The position numbers and the translations under genes were made by a program. The notes beneath the pieces were generated by a model, which saw only the letters and a program-made list of their open reading frames with translations, did no database searches and had not been told where the DNA came from. Below, in pieces: positions 10,428 to 19,133 of a stretch of DNA of 64,000 nt. Source of the stretch: Fibrobacterota bacterium. Its GTDB lineage: Bacteria > Fibrobacterota > Fibrobacteria > UBA11236. Location: NCBI GenBank assembly GCA_028287465.1, contig JAQBPO010000012.1, positions 1 to 64,000 of the forward strand, read 5' to 3'. Each line of letters begins with the position of its first letter. Position 1 is the stretch's first letter.

Positions 10428-11486
10428 ATGTTGGTCGAATTCACGGTCAGCCGCAATGACGCGGGCCAGAGGGCCGAACGGTATCTCCGTAGGCGCCTCG
10501 CGGCCATGAGCCTCGATCGGCTGCACTCCTTGTTCCGTCGCAAGGAAATCAAGATTGCCCGGAAGCCCATCAAGAAGAACCACCTTCTCCTCGAAGACGA
10601 TATCATCCAAATCTACGGGCTCCGGCCCGAAGACGCGGTCGATACCGACGGTCCGGGATATGCCGCGGCGGCCACTGAAAAGGCATTGACCGCCATGGAA
10701 GGCGGCGCGGAAGGGCAACCTGGTGGTCGTCCATTCCTGGGTATCCCCATCCTGCATGAGGATGCGGATCTGCTGGTCCTGGACAAGCCCGCCAACCTGG
10801 CGGTCCATCCCGGTACCGGCATCGTTACGGGAGACACCGTCATCGAGAAGGTCCGCATCTACCTGGCGGGGGAGAGGCGCAGGGACGAGATCTTCCAACC
10901 CTCCCTGGTCCATCGCCTGGATAAGGATACCTCCGGGGTCCTCGTGGTCGCGAAAACGGGGGAAAGCCTGCGCCGTCTGACCGAGTCCTTGCGGGACGGA
11001 GGCTTCACCAAAAAGTACCTGGCCCTTGTGGAAGGGGTCCCCTCCCCTCGCAACGGTGAGATTTCCGGCATGCTGCAGAGGGTGGACAGCCGCTCCGGAG
11101 GGGCCAAGGCGGAAGTCTCGCAAGAGGACGGGAAATGGTCGGTTACGCGGTACCGGACGGTAAAAGATTTCGGGAATTTTAGCCTGCTGGGTGTTATTAT
11201 TGAGACCGGCAGGATGCATCAAATCAGGGCACATTTGGCGAGCCAGGGGCACCCCCTGGTCGGGGATCCGCGCTACGGTTCCTTCGAGCGTAACCGTGCC
11301 TATCGGAAAACCCTAGGATTGAAACGCACCTTCCTCCATGCCGCCGATCTGGAAATCGACATGGGCGATGGCAGGATGCTCGCCTTCCATGCCCCCCTCC
11401 CGAAAGACCTGGCCCTGGCCTTGGATCGAATCCCCACCCATCCTGAAATCCCGGATCCGACCGCGCCCCGGAAGGGTCCGCAATGA
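10428..11486 (+). CDS. RluA-family rRNA pseudouridine synthase (RluC/RluD type)
   Basis: The protein has 352 residues. An S4 RNA-binding domain covers about residues 1-70 (YLRRRLAAMSLDRLHSLFRRKEI), followed by the synthase domain with catalytic motif HRLDKDTSG; D165 is the expected catalytic aspartate. The substrate-binding block GRMHQIRAHLASQGHPLVGD is intact. RluC and RluD cannot be separated from the sequence alone. RluD makes the pseudouridine 1915 that RlmH methylates, which would fit the neighbourhood. I chose ATG 10428 because the S4 domain begins there; the frame is open further upstream. Its stop overlaps the next start (ATGA). Confidence 0.92.
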   Translation: MLVEFTVSRNDAGQRAERYLRRRLAAMSLDRLHSLFRRKEIKIARKPIKKNHLLLEDDIIQIYGLRPEDAVDTDGPGYAAAATEKALTAMEGGAEGQPGGRPFLGIPILHEDADLLVLDKPANLAVHPGTGIVTGDTVIEKVRIYLAGERRRDEIFQPSLVHRLDKDTSGVLVVAKTGESLRRLTESLRDGGFTKKYLALVEGVPSPRNGEISGMLQRVDSRSGGAKAEVSQEDGKWSVTRYRTVKDFGNFSLLGVIIETGRMHQIRAHLASQGHPLVGDPRYGSFERNRAYRKTLGLKRTFLHAADLEIDMGDGRMLAFHAPLPKDLALALDRIPTHPEIPDPTAPRKGPQ

Positions 11487-14341
11487 ACCCCCTGGCGCCG
11501 CAACCCCCGCCCTTCAATCCCCGCTCCAATCCTTTGCCGGGGGCGGCACCGGCGACCGGCGCGATCCCCAATACGGGCACCAATCCCTTGACGGGCACCA
11601 ATCCCTTGACCCAGGCCACGGCCAATTCGCTTTTGCAGGTCCAGGTGGGCGGCCGCCTGGGCAAATACGTCATCCTGTCCGAACTCGGCCGCGGCGGCAT
11701 GGCGGTCGTATTCAAGGCCCATCAGCCGGATCTCGATCGCCTGGTGGCCATCAAGGTCCTCTTCGGAACCGTGCTGCAGCAGCGCTTCGTGGAACGCTTC
11801 CAGGCCGAGGCGCGCTCCGTGGCCAAGATGAACCATCCGAACGTGATCCGCATCTTCGAGGTGGGGGAGCAGAACGGCGTCCATTATCTGGTGATGGAAT
11901 ACATCCAGGGCATGGACCTGCTCGCGTTCCTGCACGAGAAGAAGCCCAGCTTCAACGAAGTGGTGGAGATCGTGAACCAGGTCTCGGAGGCCCTCGCCTA
12001 TTGCCATCGCCAGGGCATCATCCACCGGGATTTGAAGCCGACCAACATCCTGATGCGCGGCACCACGCCCATCGTCATCGATTTCGGCCTGGCCAAGGCG
12101 GTCGATCCCAACCTCAACGTCACCCTCACGCTCTCGGGCGAGGTGGTGGGCTCGCCCGCCTACATGTCCCCGGAACAGGCAATGGGTCATTCGGTGGGGA
12201 CCCTCTCGGACGTATGCTCCGTGGGCATCATCATGTACGAGCTCATCTCGTTCAAGAACCCTTATCTGGATCCGCGCTCCCTGCACCAGACCGCGCTCAA
12301 CGCCATCAAGGCCGAACCGGTGCCCCTGCGTTACCTTTCCCCCTGGCTGGATTCGGACTTCGCCGCCATCGTGCAGACCAGCATGGCCAAGGATCTCAAG
12401 GACCGGTACCAGAGCATCGAACTGCTGCTCAAGGATCTGTATTCCTACCGGAACGGCCTGCCCATCATGGCCAAGCCGCCCAGCGCCATCAACCTGGCGT
12501 GGCGCTTCGTCAAGGCCAATCCCATCCTGTACCTGGGGGCGGGATTCCTGCTGCTCATTGCCGGCGTCGTCTTCGGCCTCGTCAGCCTCCAGGAGGAAAG
12601 CAAAAAGGCCCCTTGGGGCCTGGTTCAGGAGGAGACCTTCAACAAGACGGACTCCTCTCTCAAGTTCGTTTCCTTCGATCGCGTGAACGGGGCCTGGGTG
12701 CCATCCGAATCCTGGAAGGTGGCGCGCGGCAGGCTCGAGGCCTTCTCTTCCGGGCAATCCTTCGCCGTGGCCAACCAGGAATTCTTCGGGGACCTGAAAA
12801 TCGAGTTCACCGTCAAGGGCCTCAACGGCAGCAACAACGATTTCAACGCCTTCCTGTTCGGCGCCACGCCGGATGACGCGTTCCGGTTTTCGCTGGGGGA
12901 ATGGGGCACCTCGGTCGCCAACATCGATTACGGCAAGACCGCGCGGTACGCCTTCAATACCGCCCCGGTCAAGCTCAACGGCGGCGTCATCTACAAGGTG
13001 ACCATCGAAAAAGAGGACAACGTCATCCAGCTGTTCCTGAACGATGTGCTGCTCGTGCGGAAGTACTACACCCTGCCCGTCAAGGTGGAACGCAGCAGCA
13101 AGTTCGGCTTCTACACCTGGAACTCCAGCCTGGCCATCGACGACCTCCGCATCTACAAGAAGGCGGTCGCCCTCTCGGCCAAACCGACCGTGGTGGCGGA
13201 CGCTTACCTCGAAGAGGGCTTCATCACCAACAGCATCCCGGCATACAAGCACGTGATCGAGGCCTATCCCAACAAGAGCATCTCGTACGAAGCCCATATG
13301 AAGATGGGGGAGAGCTTCATGGTGCTGAAGAACTACAGCGGCGCCATCCAGAACCTCACCCTGGCGGCCAGCAATTCCAAGGATCCCAAAATCATCCCCG
13401 AGGCCCTGTTCCAGCTGGCGCAATGCTATTTCGACCTCGGCAAGGCGAGTTCCGGCTACGATAAGCTGAAATTGCTCCCTTCCGGCTTCCCGGAATCCGA
13501 TTTCAACAACGTGGTCGTGCAGTCGCGGATCGAGGCGGTCTATCAGTGCCTGAACAGCGGCGAGAACCCCGACCTCTGCGCGGCCCGCATGATAGACGAA
13601 TTCCGCTTCCTGATCCAGTTCGAGGACGCGCGCCGCCTTTCCTTCGGCCGCTTCTACGCGGACATGACGGAGATATTCCGGCGCCTCGGGCAGTCCTCGC
13701 CCATGCAGAACGCGCAGCATCTCCTGACCTATTACCAGGAAAGCGATGAGATCACCTGTTCCCTGCGGCTCATCCTGGCGAAATACTACCTGGGCATGCG
13801 CGATCCGGCCCGGGCCCTGTTCATGCTCCAGTCCGCTCCCCAGGGGGACAACGTGGCGCGGGAGCTGAAGGCCGAGAAGGACTTCCTGACGGCGGAAATG
13901 GCCTTCCTGGAAGGCAAGAACTCCCAGGCGGCCGAGCTCTACGATCGGACCTATCGGCAGTTCAATTCCGTTAACGGCATGGCCTTCAAATGCATCCTCC
14001 ATTCCTTGGTCATAAAGACCGTGGCGGACATCCCCGTGCTCCCGGTGGATCGGAAGCTGTACCTGAACGAAGCCGCGTCCCGTAAAGAACGGATGCAGAT
14101 GGCGTTCCTGGCGGACAAGATCCCGGAGGATTATTTCCGCCGGGGCGTCCCCGCCGGTTTCGGTCCGCCGGAATCCCTGGAGGACATGCTGGTCTATTTC
14201 CTGAAGATTGAGGGGACCGAAGGTTCCGCCAAGGCCGCAGCCTACCTGGAAGCCGGCCTGGCGCGCTTTCCCGCCACGACCTTCGAATACCGCTACCTGG
14301 AATTCCTGTTGAAGCGGTTCAAGGAAGAGAAGCGGGTTTGA
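11483..14341 (+). CDS. Transmembrane Ser/Thr protein kinase with extracytoplasmic jelly-roll and TPR region
   Basis: The 952-residue protein begins with a Pro/Asn/Thr-rich tail (1-55) containing tandem GTNPLT units. The Hanks-type kinase domain spans about 60-325: glycine loop LGRGGMAVVFK, lysine in VAIKVL (K91), HRDLKPTN (about 180) and DFG (about 200). A single membrane span (about 345-368, YLGAGFLLLIAGVVFGLV) follows. The outer part has a beta-sandwich resembling 3-keto-disaccharide hydrolase/LamG folds (about 375-570) and then helical TPR-like repeats to the end. All catalytic residues are present, so it should be active. The outer domain probably senses an envelope ligand (inference). 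It overlaps the upstream synthase gene by 4 bp. Confidence 0.92.
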   Translation: MNPLAPQPPPFNPRSNPLPGAAPATGAIPNTGTNPLTGTNPLTQATANSLLQVQVGGRLGKYVILSELGRGGMAVVFKAHQPDLDRLVAIKVLFGTVLQQRFVERFQAEARSVAKMNHPNVIRIFEVGEQNGVHYLVMEYIQGMDLLAFLHEKKPSFNEVVEIVNQVSEALAYCHRQGIIHRDLKPTNILMRGTTPIVIDFGLAKAVDPNLNVTLTLSGEVVGSPAYMSPEQAMGHSVGTLSDVCSVGIIMYELISFKNPYLDPRSLHQTALNAIKAEPVPLRYLSPWLDSDFAAIVQTSMAKDLKDRYQSIELLLKDLYSYRNGLPIMAKPPSAINLAWRFVKANPILYLGAGFLLLIAGVVFGLVSLQEESKKAPWGLVQEETFNKTDSSLKFVSFDRVNGAWVPSESWKVARGRLEAFSSGQSFAVANQEFFGDLKIEFTVKGLNGSNNDFNAFLFGATPDDAFRFSLGEWGTSVANIDYGKTARYAFNTAPVKLNGGVIYKVTIEKEDNVIQLFLNDVLLVRKYYTLPVKVERSSKFGFYTWNSSLAIDDLRIYKKAVALSAKPTVVADAYLEEGFITNSIPAYKHVIEAYPNKSISYEAHMKMGESFMVLKNYSGAIQNLTLAASNSKDPKIIPEALFQLAQCYFDLGKASSGYDKLKLLPSGFPESDFNNVVVQSRIEAVYQCLNSGENPDLCAARMIDEFRFLIQFEDARRLSFGRFYADMTEIFRRLGQSSPMQNAQHLLTYYQESDEITCSLRLILAKYYLGMRDPARALFMLQSAPQGDNVARELKAEKDFLTAEMAFLEGKNSQAAELYDRTYRQFNSVNGMAFKCILHSLVIKTVADIPVLPVDRKLYLNEAASRKERMQMAFLADKIPEDYFRRGVPAGFGPPESLEDMLVYFLKIEGTEGSAKAAAYLEAGLARFPATTFEYRYLEFLLKRFKEEKRV

Positions 14342-14419
14342 CCGGGACCCGATCCGCGCCTGAATCCCTTTTCCCCTTCGATTTTCCATTTTCAGATTGC
14401 GAAATCAGATTCGCGAAGT

Positions 14420-15274
14420 TTGGTTGTCCAAGTGAGCCGTAATAACCTTCCCGCCTCCATCCTCGCCTTCGCGTGCCTTGCCCTGATTTCCTGCGAATTC
14501 CAATCCCGCAGGGCGACCTGGCGGCTCGACTCCAAGGTAACGTATAAGATACGGTATGCCGCCGAACTGAGGGCCAAGGCCGACGGGAGCTGGGGCAGCA
14601 GCCCTTACGTCTCCGCCGCCGATGCGGAGTTCTCCGGCCGCGCCGCCACGGATACGGGAAAGGGGCAGATCGAGCTCTCCCTGGCCGTCGATACCGTGGC
14701 CTACCGCAGTTCCGAACGAGGGCCCGAAGAGGACCGGTACATGACGGGCAGGCTCCGGAAATACCGCGCCAAGGCCACCTTATCCCGCACGGGCCAGGTC
14801 CTGGCCCTGGAAGAGGAGCCGGGATTGCCCCCGGTGGAATTCACCCCCCTCAATTTCGGCCGCTACCTGGCCTACGCCCTTCCGTCCTTCCCCGATGCCC
14901 CCATCAAAAAGGGCAGTCGATGGGAAACGGTCCAGCCCTTATTGGATAAATTCCATCCCGATTCCCGGGTTCTCAAGCGCTTCACCCTCTCCGCCATCCG
15001 GGAAACCCCCGAAGGGGACCTTGCCGTCTGCTCCGTGGAAATGGAAGCCTTTCTGGACGAAGACCTGGGGGATGGGGCGGATACCACCAAACCGTCCCTG
15101 ACCGGGAGGGGCCAGATGGTCTTCAACCTCGGCAAGGGCCGTCCGGTGTCCTCGGAATTGGAGCTCGAAGGCCGTTTCATGAGCCGGCTTCCCCAAAAGG
15201 CCGGGGATTCCACCCAGCCGGAACCGCTTCCCTTGCGGCTCCAGGAAAAGGTGAAGCTGGAATTCTCCGAATAA
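14420..15274 (+). CDS. Predicted lipoprotein of unknown function
   Basis: This 284-residue protein has a lipoprotein signal: a short polar start, the hydrophobic stretch PASILAFACLALIS, then lipobox LISC. The rest is beta-rich and has no motif I can assign with confidence. The layout (a threshold-like LPSFPDAPIKKGSRWETVQPL block followed by GRGQMVFNLGKGRPVSSELELEG) recalls DUF6263-type lipoproteins, but that is only a resemblance. The start is TTG 14420; GTG 14432 is equally plausible, and no clear ribosome binding site is visible. It follows the transmembrane kinase by 78 bp and precedes the coiled-coil gene set, so it may act in the same envelope process. Confidence 0.7.
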   Translation: MVVQVSRNNLPASILAFACLALISCEFQSRRATWRLDSKVTYKIRYAAELRAKADGSWGSSPYVSAADAEFSGRAATDTGKGQIELSLAVDTVAYRSSERGPEEDRYMTGRLRKYRAKATLSRTGQVLALEEEPGLPPVEFTPLNFGRYLAYALPSFPDAPIKKGSRWETVQPLLDKFHPDSRVLKRFTLSAIRETPEGDLAVCSVEMEAFLDEDLGDGADTTKPSLTGRGQMVFNLGKGRPVSSELELEGRFMSRLPQKAGDSTQPEPLPLRLQEKVKLEFSE

Positions 15275-15382
15275 GCGGTTCCGATTGAAGGGGTTTTTGA
15301 GCCCGGTGCCGGACCCGGCCCGGTTCGAATCCCGGCCGCCCTCCACCGGCCGTATTTATTGGCCCGGGGGCCCGCCGCGCGG

Positions 15383-15411
15383 CTGACCGGAAGGCGATAA
15401 ACCACTATATT
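15383..15411 (+). promoter_or_regulatory. Promoter of the 15.4-19.1 kb three-gene operon
   Basis: CTGACC (15383-15388) and TATATT (15406-15411) are separated by 17 bp. The start codon TTG 15422 is 10 nt after the -10 box and has no Shine-Dalgarno, so the message is nearly leaderless. Confidence 0.5.
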
Positions 15412-15421
15412 TCCTCACCTA

Positions 15422-16396
15422 TTGAGCCACCGATTGATCCAAAGTTACAAGGCCTTCACGTCCAAGGATTGGCCTGATTCCCTCGCGGCTCCCGCGCCTT
15501 CGGGCAAGGGTTCCCATGTCCCGAAGGGTTCCGGATCGGATCCCCGCAACGTACTCGGGTTCGTGACCGGTCTGGCGGATCCCAACCATAGCATCCTCAT
15601 CCGCGCGCTCCTGGATCGGGAGTCCCTGCCCGTTTCCGATACCGCTTCGGATTTCTCCGGCCTCTCCGCCGGCCCATCCGCCTATTCCATGGTGCAGGAC
15701 CGTATCGAACGCATCCGCGAGGAATCTTCGTTGAAGTTCATGGAATTCCGGGACAAATGGCGCAAGCGGCTGGCCTTCGTGCAATTGCATCCCTTCCTCC
15801 AGCGCAACCAATGGTTCCAGCAGGAGATCGGAGGGTATTCCCTGGTGGGGAAGGGCACCCGCAAGGAAGCGAAGATGCTCTACCTGCAGTCCCTGCACGA
15901 CATGGCGTCCGACGGGGAGCGCCAGGTATCCGCCCTGAGCGGCCATATGTTCCGCCTGCAAGGCGAACTGGCCGCGGTATGGCACCGGGAGTCCATCACC
16001 GACGACCGGAGCAAGCTGCTGCCGGCCCTGGAAGCCGCGCTTCGCGCGGGAGAGGCGGAATTGTTCAAACGTCTCCGCTTATCCCTGGGGGACCTCGCCC
16101 TGGAAACCTTCACCGAGCGCGTGGCCAAATGGGACAAGCGCATCTACGGTTCGGAAGAGGAGATGTTCCGCGGCATCGCCTGGCCCTGGCTGAGCGCCCG
16201 GTACCGAAGCGGCTTCGAGGGTTTCATGGAAACCTTCGCGGACCTGTCGGAAGCCATCTGCGAATCCATGATCGTGCATTACGAGGGCAAATGGGACCTC
16301 ATGCTGCGCGGCCTGGCCCCGACCCAGCTATCCATCTTTCCGCGCCTCGCCTTTTCGGCGGGCGCGCCGCGCGCATCCGAACCACCGGCAGCCTGA
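15422..16396 (+). CDS. Uncharacterised helical protein, DUF3348-like
   Basis: This 324-residue soluble protein has no signal peptide or membrane span. The N-terminal 100 residues are mixed. The remainder is predicted helical, with a conserved-looking C-terminal block (residues about 195-310) rich in Trp, Arg and Glu. Its layout, and above all its place before a two-TM coiled-coil gene and a third soluble gene, resemble the DUF3348 protein that opens DUF3348/DUF802/(OmpA)/DUF2894 clusters in proteobacteria. I have this from memory of those families and could not test it. The start is TTG, supported by a promoter 10 nt upstream. The function is unknown. Confidence 0.7.
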   Translation: MSHRLIQSYKAFTSKDWPDSLAAPAPSGKGSHVPKGSGSDPRNVLGFVTGLADPNHSILIRALLDRESLPVSDTASDFSGLSAGPSAYSMVQDRIERIREESSLKFMEFRDKWRKRLAFVQLHPFLQRNQWFQQEIGGYSLVGKGTRKEAKMLYLQSLHDMASDGERQVSALSGHMFRLQGELAAVWHRESITDDRSKLLPALEAALRAGEAELFKRLRLSLGDLALETFTERVAKWDKRIYGSEEEMFRGIAWPWLSARYRSGFEGFMETFADLSEAICESMIVHYEGKWDLMLRGLAPTQLSIFPRLAFSAGAPRASEPPAA

Positions 16397-16444
16397 GCGC
16401 CGGCAACGTCACTTTTCCGCTTTTCGCCATCTGGAGAACCATCC

Positions 16445-18100
16445 ATGTCACAAAGAAGAAATTACGGCCGACTCCTCCTGCTCGCCAGCCTGGTGCTCGG
16501 CGTGTTCCTGCTCACCGGGTCCTTCATCTGGATGCAGGACAAGGCCAACATGATCCTGGCCGTCTTCGTCCTCATCCTGTACGGCATCGGCCAATGGATG
16601 ACGATCGCCTACTGGCAGAACATCCAGTCCGATTGGGAATCCACCGGGGAAGTGCTGGCGCGCCTGCAGCAGGCCGTCAGCGATATCCCCGCCGCCCTGG
16701 ACTCCAATCTCAAGTCCATCGCCACCCGCTTGAGCGAAGGCCAGGCCCAAGCGCTCTCCAAGCTGCAGAGCGAAGTGAGTTCCGGAGCCAAGGAAACCCT
16801 GGAGAAGGGGTCCGTGATGATCGGCGACAGCCTGGCCAAGAACCTGGCCTCGCCCTTGGAAGCCATGAAAGCCCTCCTGACCGGCTTCGCGGAGAAGTCG
16901 GCCGACCAGACCGCGCAACTCCAGGCCCTGACCCAAAGCGTCCGCGATGACTCCCGCAAGGCGCTGACCGAAGGCGCCGCTCTCATCACCGGAAGCCTGG
17001 ACAAGAACCTTCGCGCTCCGCTGTCCTCCCTTGAAGCCACCATGGGTTCCTGGCAACAGCAGGCGGCCGCCCAGATCGAAGCTTCGCGCGCCTTCGGCGA
17101 AGAAGTCCGCAAGGCCCAGCGGGAATGGTCCGAAAAGGCCCAGCGCCTGGCCGACGGCCTCTCCTCCGAATTCAAATCCCTGGCCGCCTCCACCGCCCAA
17201 TCCGGCGAGGATTCGCGGACCGCATGGGCCGAACGCGCCGCCGAGGTCCAGACGGCTTGGGAGACGCAAATCCAAGGGCTCCAGTCCCGGCTCCTCGAGG
17301 ATGTGGTGTCCCGGGTGGAAGGCCTGCAATCGGCCCAAAGCGAAACCCAGGACGAGATCCTGGAACGCGCCCTCTCCGGCCTGGAAGGCCAAGCCAAGGT
17401 CGTCAAGGACGCGTCCGCCGAGCAGGCCAGGACCTTGCAGGAGGCCGCCGCCAACCAGGCCAAGGCCATGAAGGACGCCGCAGCGGCCTTCGAGGCCGGC
17501 CTCGAGCGCATGCGCGAAACCTCCCTGCGCCTCGTCGGGGACGTCGATGCCAAGGCGACCGAAGGCCAGGCCCGGCTCATCGAAAGCATCTCCGCGGGAC
17601 AGACCCGTTTGGTGGAGGAAATCTCCGCAGGGCAGAACCGCCTGGTCGAGGAGATCTCCGGGCTCCAGCGCCAGACCCTCGGCGAAGCGGCCAAATCCCT
17701 GGAGGCCCAAGGCCAACTGGGCTTGGAAGTCGCCGGCAAGGTATCCGAACTGGCCGATTCCATGCGCCAGGGCTCCAAGGATCTCGGAGAGCTCGCCCAT
17801 GTCTCGCAAATCAACCAGACGGAAATGCAGGCCGGCGTGGCCATGCTCAATTCCGGATTGTCCTCCATCCTCGATCGCCTCGAGAAACAGGCGGATGCCG
17901 GCGACGGGTACCAGACCTTGTTGGCCGAGCTGGGACGCACCTTGGCCTCTTTCCAGGAGCGCGCGGGAGAGGTCCTGGTCGAGAACGCCATGAAGACCCA
18001 GGAAATCCTGATGGAAGTCCTTCACCATCAGGAAGTCCGCGGCGGTTCCTCCGGGGAATCCAACCAGTCCCCGGAACAGGCCCTGGCTTCGGTCCAGTAG
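16445..18100 (+). CDS. Two-TM membrane protein with long coiled coil, DUF802-like
   Basis: The 551-residue protein has two adjacent membrane spans (about 10-29 and 36-56), then almost 500 residues of Ala/Glu/Gln/Lys-rich coiled coil that should lie in the cytoplasm or periplasm as a rod. Two 55-residue repeats are visible (from about K116 and R171), each with a SL-x-KNL-x-x-PL core. Further on there are several 11-residue repeats (for example AGQTRLVEEIS and AGQNRLVEEIS, about 365-395). This repeat pattern and the gene context fit DUF802 proteins, which are linked to ZorA-like stator proteins, but the ZorA/MotA-like TM core is not visible here. The start is ATG, 49 bp after the upstream gene. 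Confidence 0.78.
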   Translation: MSQRRNYGRLLLLASLVLGVFLLTGSFIWMQDKANMILAVFVLILYGIGQWMTIAYWQNIQSDWESTGEVLARLQQAVSDIPAALDSNLKSIATRLSEGQAQALSKLQSEVSSGAKETLEKGSVMIGDSLAKNLASPLEAMKALLTGFAEKSADQTAQLQALTQSVRDDSRKALTEGAALITGSLDKNLRAPLSSLEATMGSWQQQAAAQIEASRAFGEEVRKAQREWSEKAQRLADGLSSEFKSLAASTAQSGEDSRTAWAERAAEVQTAWETQIQGLQSRLLEDVVSRVEGLQSAQSETQDEILERALSGLEGQAKVVKDASAEQARTLQEAAANQAKAMKDAAAAFEAGLERMRETSLRLVGDVDAKATEGQARLIESISAGQTRLVEEISAGQNRLVEEISGLQRQTLGEAAKSLEAQGQLGLEVAGKVSELADSMRQGSKDLGELAHVSQINQTEMQAGVAMLNSGLSSILDRLEKQADAGDGYQTLLAELGRTLASFQERAGEVLVENAMKTQEILMEVLHHQEVRGGSSGESNQSPEQALASVQ

Positions 18101-18124
18101 ACGGAACACGGGAACGGATCGGCC

Positions 18125-19078
18125 ATGTCGGAAGCGGAAGTCATGCGGACAACGGAGGGGAGCGGGGACCTCGCGCCATCGGTGGCGGAAACCCTGGCGG
18201 CAAGGCTCGCCCGGTTCCAGGGCACGGCCTATCGCAAGGCATACCTGGCCGACCTCCTGAAAAGCGGAACGAGCTTCGAGGCTTCGGGCAACTCCCGCGG
18301 GGCCGAATATTGTTTCGCCAAGGTCGCCGACGGCCTGAAAGGCGAGCCGGATCCCTCCGAAGACGCGGATGGCTTGGATCGGGCGGACGCATCCGTGTCC
18401 GAAGAGTCCCATGACGGGGAACCGGTTCCCGAAGCCGGACCGGACTCCGGCCCCCAACCGGGCACGGAGAACGGGACATCCGTGAACGAGCCTCGGCTGC
18501 GCAAGCCCAGGTCCGCGCCCGCGAAGCCCCGTGAGAAGAACCTGACTCCCATCGAACTCATCCGCCGCAAATGGCGTACGGAGCGCCTGAAGGATGCGGA
18601 AGAGGTCCTGGACCGCCATGCCGGCCGCCTCTCCTCGCTCGAGAATCGGACCTACCGCGAGAAGCTGGACAAATTGCGATTGAGCGGCTTGTCGGCCGCA
18701 ACGCCCGCGCAATCGTCCCGGGCCGATGCCGGTCTCTTGGAATTGCGCCGCCGTCTCTATAATCGCATCCTGAAATCGCAGAAGATCTCGCTGACGCGCA
18801 GCCGGATGCCCGTTACCCTGGGACGGCTGGCCCTGCCGCCGTCACGTCCGGGAACCAAGTCCGCTGGGCCCGCCGCTCTTCCTGCCGTCGTAACGGGCGT
18901 CCGGGTCGATACGGCCTGGCAGCCCGTCACCGGACCTTACAATGATCGCTACAACATGGAGGACCTGCTCGGACTGATCGCGGAAGCCGATGCGGCCTGG
19001 GTGGAAGAGTTCCTGGAACTGTACCGCGGTCTCTCCGGCTTGCAAAACCTGATGCACTCGATCGCGCCTAAGAAATAG
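18125..19078 (+). CDS. Uncharacterised protein, DUF2894-like
   Basis: The 317-residue protein has an N-terminal helical part (1-75), an acidic, Pro/Ser-rich linker (76-140), a basic helical middle (KNLTPIELIRRKWRTERLKD onward) and a C-terminal conserved-looking block. That last block (about 265-310: a GPYNDRYN motif followed by two helices, VEEFLELYRGLSGLQNL) resembles the C-terminal end of DUF2894 proteins as I remember them. It lies 24 bp after the coiled-coil gene and closes the operon before a strong terminator. There is no catalytic motif or signal peptide, and the function is unknown. Confidence 0.72.
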   Translation: MSEAEVMRTTEGSGDLAPSVAETLAARLARFQGTAYRKAYLADLLKSGTSFEASGNSRGAEYCFAKVADGLKGEPDPSEDADGLDRADASVSEESHDGEPVPEAGPDSGPQPGTENGTSVNEPRLRKPRSAPAKPREKNLTPIELIRRKWRTERLKDAEEVLDRHAGRLSSLENRTYREKLDKLRLSGLSAATPAQSSRADAGLLELRRRLYNRILKSQKISLTRSRMPVTLGRLALPPSRPGTKSAGPAALPAVVTGVRVDTAWQPVTGPYNDRYNMEDLLGLIAEADAAWVEEFLELYRGLSGLQNLMHSIAPKK

Positions 19079-19103
19079 TCCGGGGACGATTCCGGCTCCA
19101 AAG

Positions 19104-19133
19104 AAAAAGCCCGGTCTTGGACCGGGCTTTTTC
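19104..19133. terminator. Bidirectional intrinsic terminator
   Basis: A perfect AAGCCCGGTC / GACCGGGCTT stem with a TT-type loop is flanked by A5 and T5 runs. It ends the 15.4-19.1 kb operon on the plus strand and the KaiC-like gene on the minus strand. Confidence 0.9.

What the first reader, a model, noticed from the sequence alone, without database searches (positions are those of the whole stretch)
11483..19078. Uncharacterised envelope signalling block: transmembrane kinase, lipoprotein and DUF3348/DUF802/DUF2894-like trio
A Ser/Thr kinase with a sensor-like outer domain, a lipoprotein and three co-directional unknown genes lie in a row. The last three resemble, in order, size and internal repeats, the DUF3348-DUF802-(OmpA)-DUF2894 clusters of proteobacteria, whose DUF802 members are related to ZorA-type stator proteins. 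Here the OmpA partner and the MotA/ZorA-like membrane core are not seen, so this would be a stripped-down or divergent version in another phylum.
Basis: partly seen in the sequence, partly recalled or inferred. Interest (0 to 1): 0.6.

Follow-up and report, generated by a model that had tools for sequence, protein, structure and literature searches.

The report
Motorless Zorya III-like gene trio
Three neighbouring genes in a Fibrobacteria genome are the left-over core of a gene cluster that in close relatives includes a complete ion-driven membrane motor of the Zorya type III kind; the motor has been lost at least twice while the three remaining genes are kept, so they must do something useful without it.

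Summary
The genes are real. A (15422-16396), B (16445-18100) and C (18125-19078) occur together in every class Fibrobacteria locus examined, and A is in every class genome at least 90% complete. In Fibrobacter and its nearest relatives the same operon reads lipoprotein, beta-helix protein, A, B with a MotA/ZorA core, OmpA/MotB protein, C. The OmpA protein matches the Zorya type III model ZorB3 at 1.5e-44, and the gene order equals DUF3348-DUF802-OmpA-DUF2894 of proteobacteria, which PADLOC named Zorya type III. In the window's lineage, in two other families and in one Fibrobacter-related genus group, B has no motor core and the OmpA gene is gone, also from the rest of the genome. On a GyrA tree this most likely takes at least two losses. 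The trio is under purifying selection. The kinase is a genus-specific neighbour. Best reading: a membrane-tethered cytoplasmic scaffold (B anchor and tip, with A and C bound) that works without ion flow. Role unknown; core-genome inheritance argues against an ordinary mobile defence system.

The parts
15422..16396 (+). gene A, 324 aa soluble all-helical protein; occupies the DUF3348 (ZorF in the papers, ZorG3 in PADLOC-DB) position
   Evidence: class-wide profile hits; AlphaFold model pLDDT 79, pTM 0.78, no PDB fold match; homology to DUF3348 inconclusive
16445..18100 (+). gene B, 551 aa; membrane-anchored coiled-coil protein, ZorA/DUF802-like without the MotA core
16472..16606 (+). two transmembrane helices of B (aa 10-28 and 36-54), probable remnant of ZorA TM1-TM2
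   Evidence: hydropathy; weak collinear match to motor-bearing B N-terminus (score 17.4 against 11.0 reversed)
17783..18034 (+). conserved C-terminal tip domain of B, shared by motor-bearing and motorless forms (boundaries approximate)
   Evidence: profile from motor-bearing B alone finds window B at 1e-23
18125..19078 (+). gene C, 317 aa; DUF2894-like, C-terminal GPYN...WVEEFLELY motif
18932..18943 (+). codons of the GPYN motif of C; G270 and N273 are invariant through proteobacterial DUF2894 proteins
14420..15274 (+). lipoprotein gene, ancestral neighbour of A (also upstream of A in motor-bearing Fibrobacteraceae), not found near the trio in several other lineages
15383..15411 (+). sigma-70-like promoter match before A (9 of 12; consensus match only)
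19103..19133 (+). terminator-like hairpin after C, 14 pairs
11483..14341 (+). Ser/Thr kinase with one TM and TPR-like C-terminal part; genus-specific neighbour, not part of the trio

Best explanation
A-B-C is a reduced descendant of a Zorya type III-like motor cluster. Shown: relatives carry the same three genes plus the ion-channel half of B and a peptidoglycan-binding MotB/ZorB gene; in the window's lineage both motor pieces are absent, while the membrane anchor, the coiled-coil tail and the conserved tip of B, and both soluble partners, are kept under selection. Inferred: B is a membrane-tethered spacer whose tip gathers A and C at the inner face of the membrane. In motor-bearing relatives ion flow through a ZorA5B2-like motor would drive or gate this assembly; here it works as a static scaffold without ion flow or cell-wall anchoring. 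Inferred and less sure: because it is single-copy, syntenic and present in every near-complete genome of the class, it serves a core cell-envelope or membrane function rather than being an occasionally acquired phage defence.
For: Full motor form in Fibrobacteraceae (f3) and f5: OmpA protein hits ZorB3 at 1.5e-44, ion-path Asp in the FTDL motif, profile-profile to proteobacterial OmpA partners 6.6e-39 and B 1.7e-14. A motor-core query finds the four motor-bearing control genomes (E 1e-33 to 1e-60) and nothing convincing in 15 motorless ones. ZorB3-class proteins (E below 1e-37) occur only in f3 and f5, generic OmpA beginning at 1e-22. A B-tip profile made from motor-bearing sequences alone ranks the B of every motorless lineage first among 2205 ORFs: window 1e-23, g12/g14 1e-14 to 1e-18, f2 1e-24, f4 2e-4, next unrelated ORF 0.41. 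A C profile behaves the same way. GyrA tree: g12/g14 (motorless) nested inside motor-bearing f3+f5; f1+f2 and f4 also motorless; A tree congruent. dN/dS 0.11-0.32. A in 120 of 126 class genomes, missing only from assemblies at most 88% complete.
Against: No experiment. Binding of A and C to the B tip is inferred from co-occurrence only; no complex was modelled. Ancestry of the motor rests on shared gene order with proteobacteria: by bare parsimony on the GyrA tree, one gain in f3+f5 and one loss in g12/g14 costs fewer steps than three losses. The match of the B tip to proteobacterial DUF802 tails is weak (E 0.005), and A against DUF3348 is not significant.
Confidence: 0.6

Rival explanations
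1. A dedicated phage-defence system: a Zorya type III variant that defends without a motor, with A and C as effectors or regulators held at the membrane by B.
For: Gene order and ZorB3 relation of the relatives; a Zorya type III locus from Stenotrophomonas reduced plaquing in E. coli (PMC8565338).
Against: ZorA ion flow and ZorB peptidoglycan binding are needed in types I and II (PMC11890865), and both parts are absent here. The locus is in every near-complete class genome, in fixed housekeeping synteny (rluD ... kaiC, holA, greA, argJ, glyA), not in a defence island or on a mobile element.
Confidence: 0.25
2. The motorless trio is the ancestral state: a scaffold that later captured a MotA-like channel and an OmpA gene in the ancestor of f3+f5.
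For: Two steps instead of three on the GyrA tree.
Against: The OmpA gene sits between B and C exactly as in proteobacteria and belongs to ZorB3, which would need the same insertion twice or horizontal transfer; window B keeps a TM hairpin at the place of ZorA TM1-TM2.
Confidence: 0.2
3. Kinase, lipoprotein and trio form one envelope signalling pathway.
For: Adjacent in all six genomes of the window's genus.
Against: The kinase is next to the trio in no other genus and its nearest f4 relative lies on another contig; its start overlaps the stop of the upstream pseudouridine synthase gene (11483 against 11486), and A has its own promoter-like site.
Confidence: 0.08

Closest known systems
Zorya type III (zorA3-zorB3 with DUF3348 and DUF2894 genes)
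   Same: Gene order A-B-(O)-C; C resembles DUF2894; B has an N-terminal membrane anchor and long cytoplasmic tail; relatives' O protein is ZorB3 and relatives' B has the ZorA core.
   Different: Window form has no ZorB and no channel core in B; A not recognisably DUF3348; core-genome inheritance.
Motor-bearing cluster of Fibrobacteraceae (this work: L077, L080 and others)
   Same: Orthologous A, B tip and C, same order, upstream lipoprotein.
   Different: Has MotA-like TM3-TM4 core in B, an OmpA/MotB gene and a periplasmic beta-helix gene.
g12/g14 reduced trio (this work: L110-L116, L122, L123)
   Same: A, B, C without motor.
   Different: B only 168-239 aa: one TM, proline-rich PKIE spacer instead of coiled coil, then the tip; A shortened to about 250 aa.
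MotAB/TolQR/ExbBD 5:2 ion-driven motors
   Same: Distant relatives of the motor-bearing form.
   Different: The window form lacks the ion path altogether.

Membership tests
Zorya type III | ZorA with MotA/ExbB/TolQ channel core | tested here: not met
   Window B has two TM helices only; motor-core search negative in the whole genome. Met in f3/f5 relatives.
Zorya type III | ZorB (MotB/OmpA, PADLOC ZorB3) | tested here: not met
   No ZorB3-class protein in the window's genome; best is generic OmpA at 5e-18 on another contig. Met in f3/f5 (1.5e-44).
Zorya type III | DUF3348 protein (PF11828) | tested here: inconclusive
   No Pfam hit; profile-profile score within shuffled controls; same position in the operon.
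Zorya type III | DUF2894 protein (PF11445) | tested here: inconclusive
   No Pfam hit, but a proteobacterial DUF2894 profile ranks Fibrobacteria C proteins first among non-proteobacterial ORFs (E 0.001-0.04) and hhalign scores 31-39 against a highest reliable shuffle of 26-30; shared GPxN motif.
Zorya type III | anti-phage activity | not testable with these tools
   Needs plaque assays.
DUF802 (PF05650) | 53-residue repeats reaching the Pfam cut-off | tested here: not met
   No PF05650 hit in window B; Azoarcus B hits at 2.3e-32.

The most novel reading that the evidence does not exclude
An ion-driven membrane motor of the Zorya/MotAB kind has been stripped, at least twice and perhaps three times independently, of its ion channel and cell-wall anchor, while its tail tip and two soluble partners persist as a universal, selected core system of a bacterial class. 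The tail complex is then the primary functional unit and the motor an optional drive.
Probability: 0.45. Interest if true: 0.75.

Novelty: new variant of a known kind. Interest (0 to 1): 0.56.

Why it matters
What DUF3348 and DUF2894 proteins do, and whether Zorya type III is really a defence system, is open. A natural series with full motor, motorless coiled-coil form and minimal one-TM form separates motor from payload, and shows that the payload is kept when the motor goes. It makes the question testable in cultivable Fibrobacter, and it warns that ZorA/ZorB-like genes in a core genome need not mean phage defence.

Tried and rejected
Pfam, NCBIfam and PADLOC scans of the window trio: no family; the ZorA3 hit of B at 6e-5 lies in coiled coil. 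PDB sequence search for A and fold searches for A and C and viral fold search for A: only generic helical bundles. Viral and phage collections: no relatives of A or of DUF3348. A against DUF3348 by profile-profile, global mode and HMM ranking: no signal above controls; and once a few shuffles show scores above 100, which I take to be artefacts of the shuffled files and ignored. First GyrA tree used wrong reading frames for some rows and was replaced. Kinase as part of the system: rejected. Missing motor genes relocated elsewhere in the genome: not found.

Full report
What is there. The ORFs stand at the stated coordinates. The kinase (11483-14341) is a Pkinase protein with one transmembrane helix and a TPR-like outer part. 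The lipoprotein (14420-15274), A (15422-16396), B (16445-18100) and C (18125-19078) match no Pfam or NCBIfam family at a curated cut-off. B has two N-terminal membrane helices followed by a long coiled coil and a conserved tip. A 14-pair hairpin closes the unit at 19103-19133, and a promoter-like site lies just before A.

Conservation. A is found in all 41 nearest genomes and, with a profile, in 120 of 126 genomes of the class; the six without it are at most 88% complete, and no genome of the other classes of the phylum has a match. Named relatives are Fibrobacteria, Fibrobacteraceae and Fibrobacter MAGs, so the window is a member of class Fibrobacteria. B and C lie next to A in every locus that is long enough to show them. 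Around the window the order rluD, A, B, C, kaiC, holA, greA, argJ, glyA holds into another family (L072), so the trio looks like vertically inherited core genome. dN/dS inside the genus is 0.11-0.32 for A, B and C: these genes are maintained, not decaying.

The motor-bearing form. In Fibrobacteraceae the operon is lipoprotein, beta-helix protein, A, B, OmpA/MotB protein, C. There B carries the MotA/TolQ/ZorA TM3-TM4 motifs, and the OmpA protein matches PADLOC ZorB3 at 1.5e-44, far better than ZorB1 (8.9e-23), with the ion-path aspartate in an FTDL motif. Annotated proteobacterial loci read DUF3348, DUF802, OmpA, DUF2894 in the same order. PADLOC named that arrangement Zorya type III and showed protection against phages by one member (PMC8565338). 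Profile comparison links the two phyla: OmpA 6.6e-39, B 1.7e-14, C 3.3e-5. These are single-pair E-values, so they were checked against reversed and shuffled columns: OmpA, B and C stay above them, A does not. Part of the B signal is coiled coil (reversed B scores 48 against 121).

The motorless forms. The window's family f1, f2, f4 and the g12/g14 group inside f3 have A, B, C and no OmpA gene. B keeps one or two TM helices and the tip, and has no channel core. A query with the motor core finds four motor-bearing control genomes and nothing convincing in the 15 motorless genomes (one hit at E 0.008 elsewhere in G006). ZorB3-class proteins are confined to f3 and f5. In g12/g14 B has shrunk to 168-239 aa, with a proline-rich PKIE spacer where others have coiled coil, yet it keeps the tip; so the membrane tether and the tip are what selection holds, and the spacer is free to change. 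A tip profile made only from motor-bearing sequences finds the B of every motorless lineage ahead of all other ORFs (window 1e-23), and the same holds for C.

Evolution. On a GyrA tree g12/g14 are nested in motor-bearing f3+f5, which is one firm loss; f1+f2 and f4 are further motorless branches, and the A tree agrees. Shared gene order with proteobacteria makes the motor form the likely ancestor and gives two or three losses. By bare parsimony a gain in f3+f5 followed by the g12/g14 loss is one step shorter, so the direction for the window's own lineage is likely, not shown.

Mechanism. Shown: which parts are kept and which are absent. Inferred: B tethers A and C to the membrane through its tip; in relatives this assembly sits on an ion-driven motor anchored to peptidoglycan. 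In Zorya I and II ion flow, peptidoglycan binding and the ZorA tail are all needed (PMC11890865), so a motorless form cannot work the Zorya way. Universal inheritance points to a core envelope or membrane function. A is a confident all-helical model (pLDDT 79, pTM 0.78) with no PDB relative; C is modelled poorly overall (pTM 0.39).

The kinase. It adjoins the trio only in the window's genus and its start overlaps the stop of the upstream pseudouridine synthase gene. A relative with 48% identity exists in f4 on another contig. It is not part of the system. The lipoprotein is an ancestral neighbour (found beside A in g1 and f3), but no homologue was found near the trio in g2, f2, f4 and g14.

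Limits. Most genomes are MAGs, but the loci are contiguous in many of them and one motor-bearing genome is a single contig. No complex was modelled and no proteobacterial DUF3348 structure was available to compare with A.

Noticed in passing
window:19183-19935: A single-domain KaiC-family ATPase gene, convergent with C, stays next to the trio in the window's genus and in family f2 (L072) but was not seen in the fetched g2 loci.
   Followed up: partly
L110-L116, L122, L123: B proteins of the g12/g14 group have a repetitive proline-rich spacer (IPKIEIPKIE...) between one TM helix and the tip; a secreted protein of about 180 aa precedes A in these loci.
   Followed up: partly
L103 (PADLOC-DB models PDLC00652-00658): PADLOC-DB 2.0.0 names DUF3348 models ZorG3 and DUF2894 models ZorF3, the reverse of the names in the PADLOC and Nat Commun papers.
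   Followed up: yes
L077:7393-8094: Fibrobacteraceae carry a secreted right-handed beta-helix protein between the lipoprotein and A; possibly a periplasmic partner of the motor form.
   Followed up: no
window:11483-14341: Kinase very strongly conserved in the genus (dN/dS 0.07-0.10), more than the trio, and overlapping the stop codon of a pseudouridine synthase gene.
   Followed up: partly
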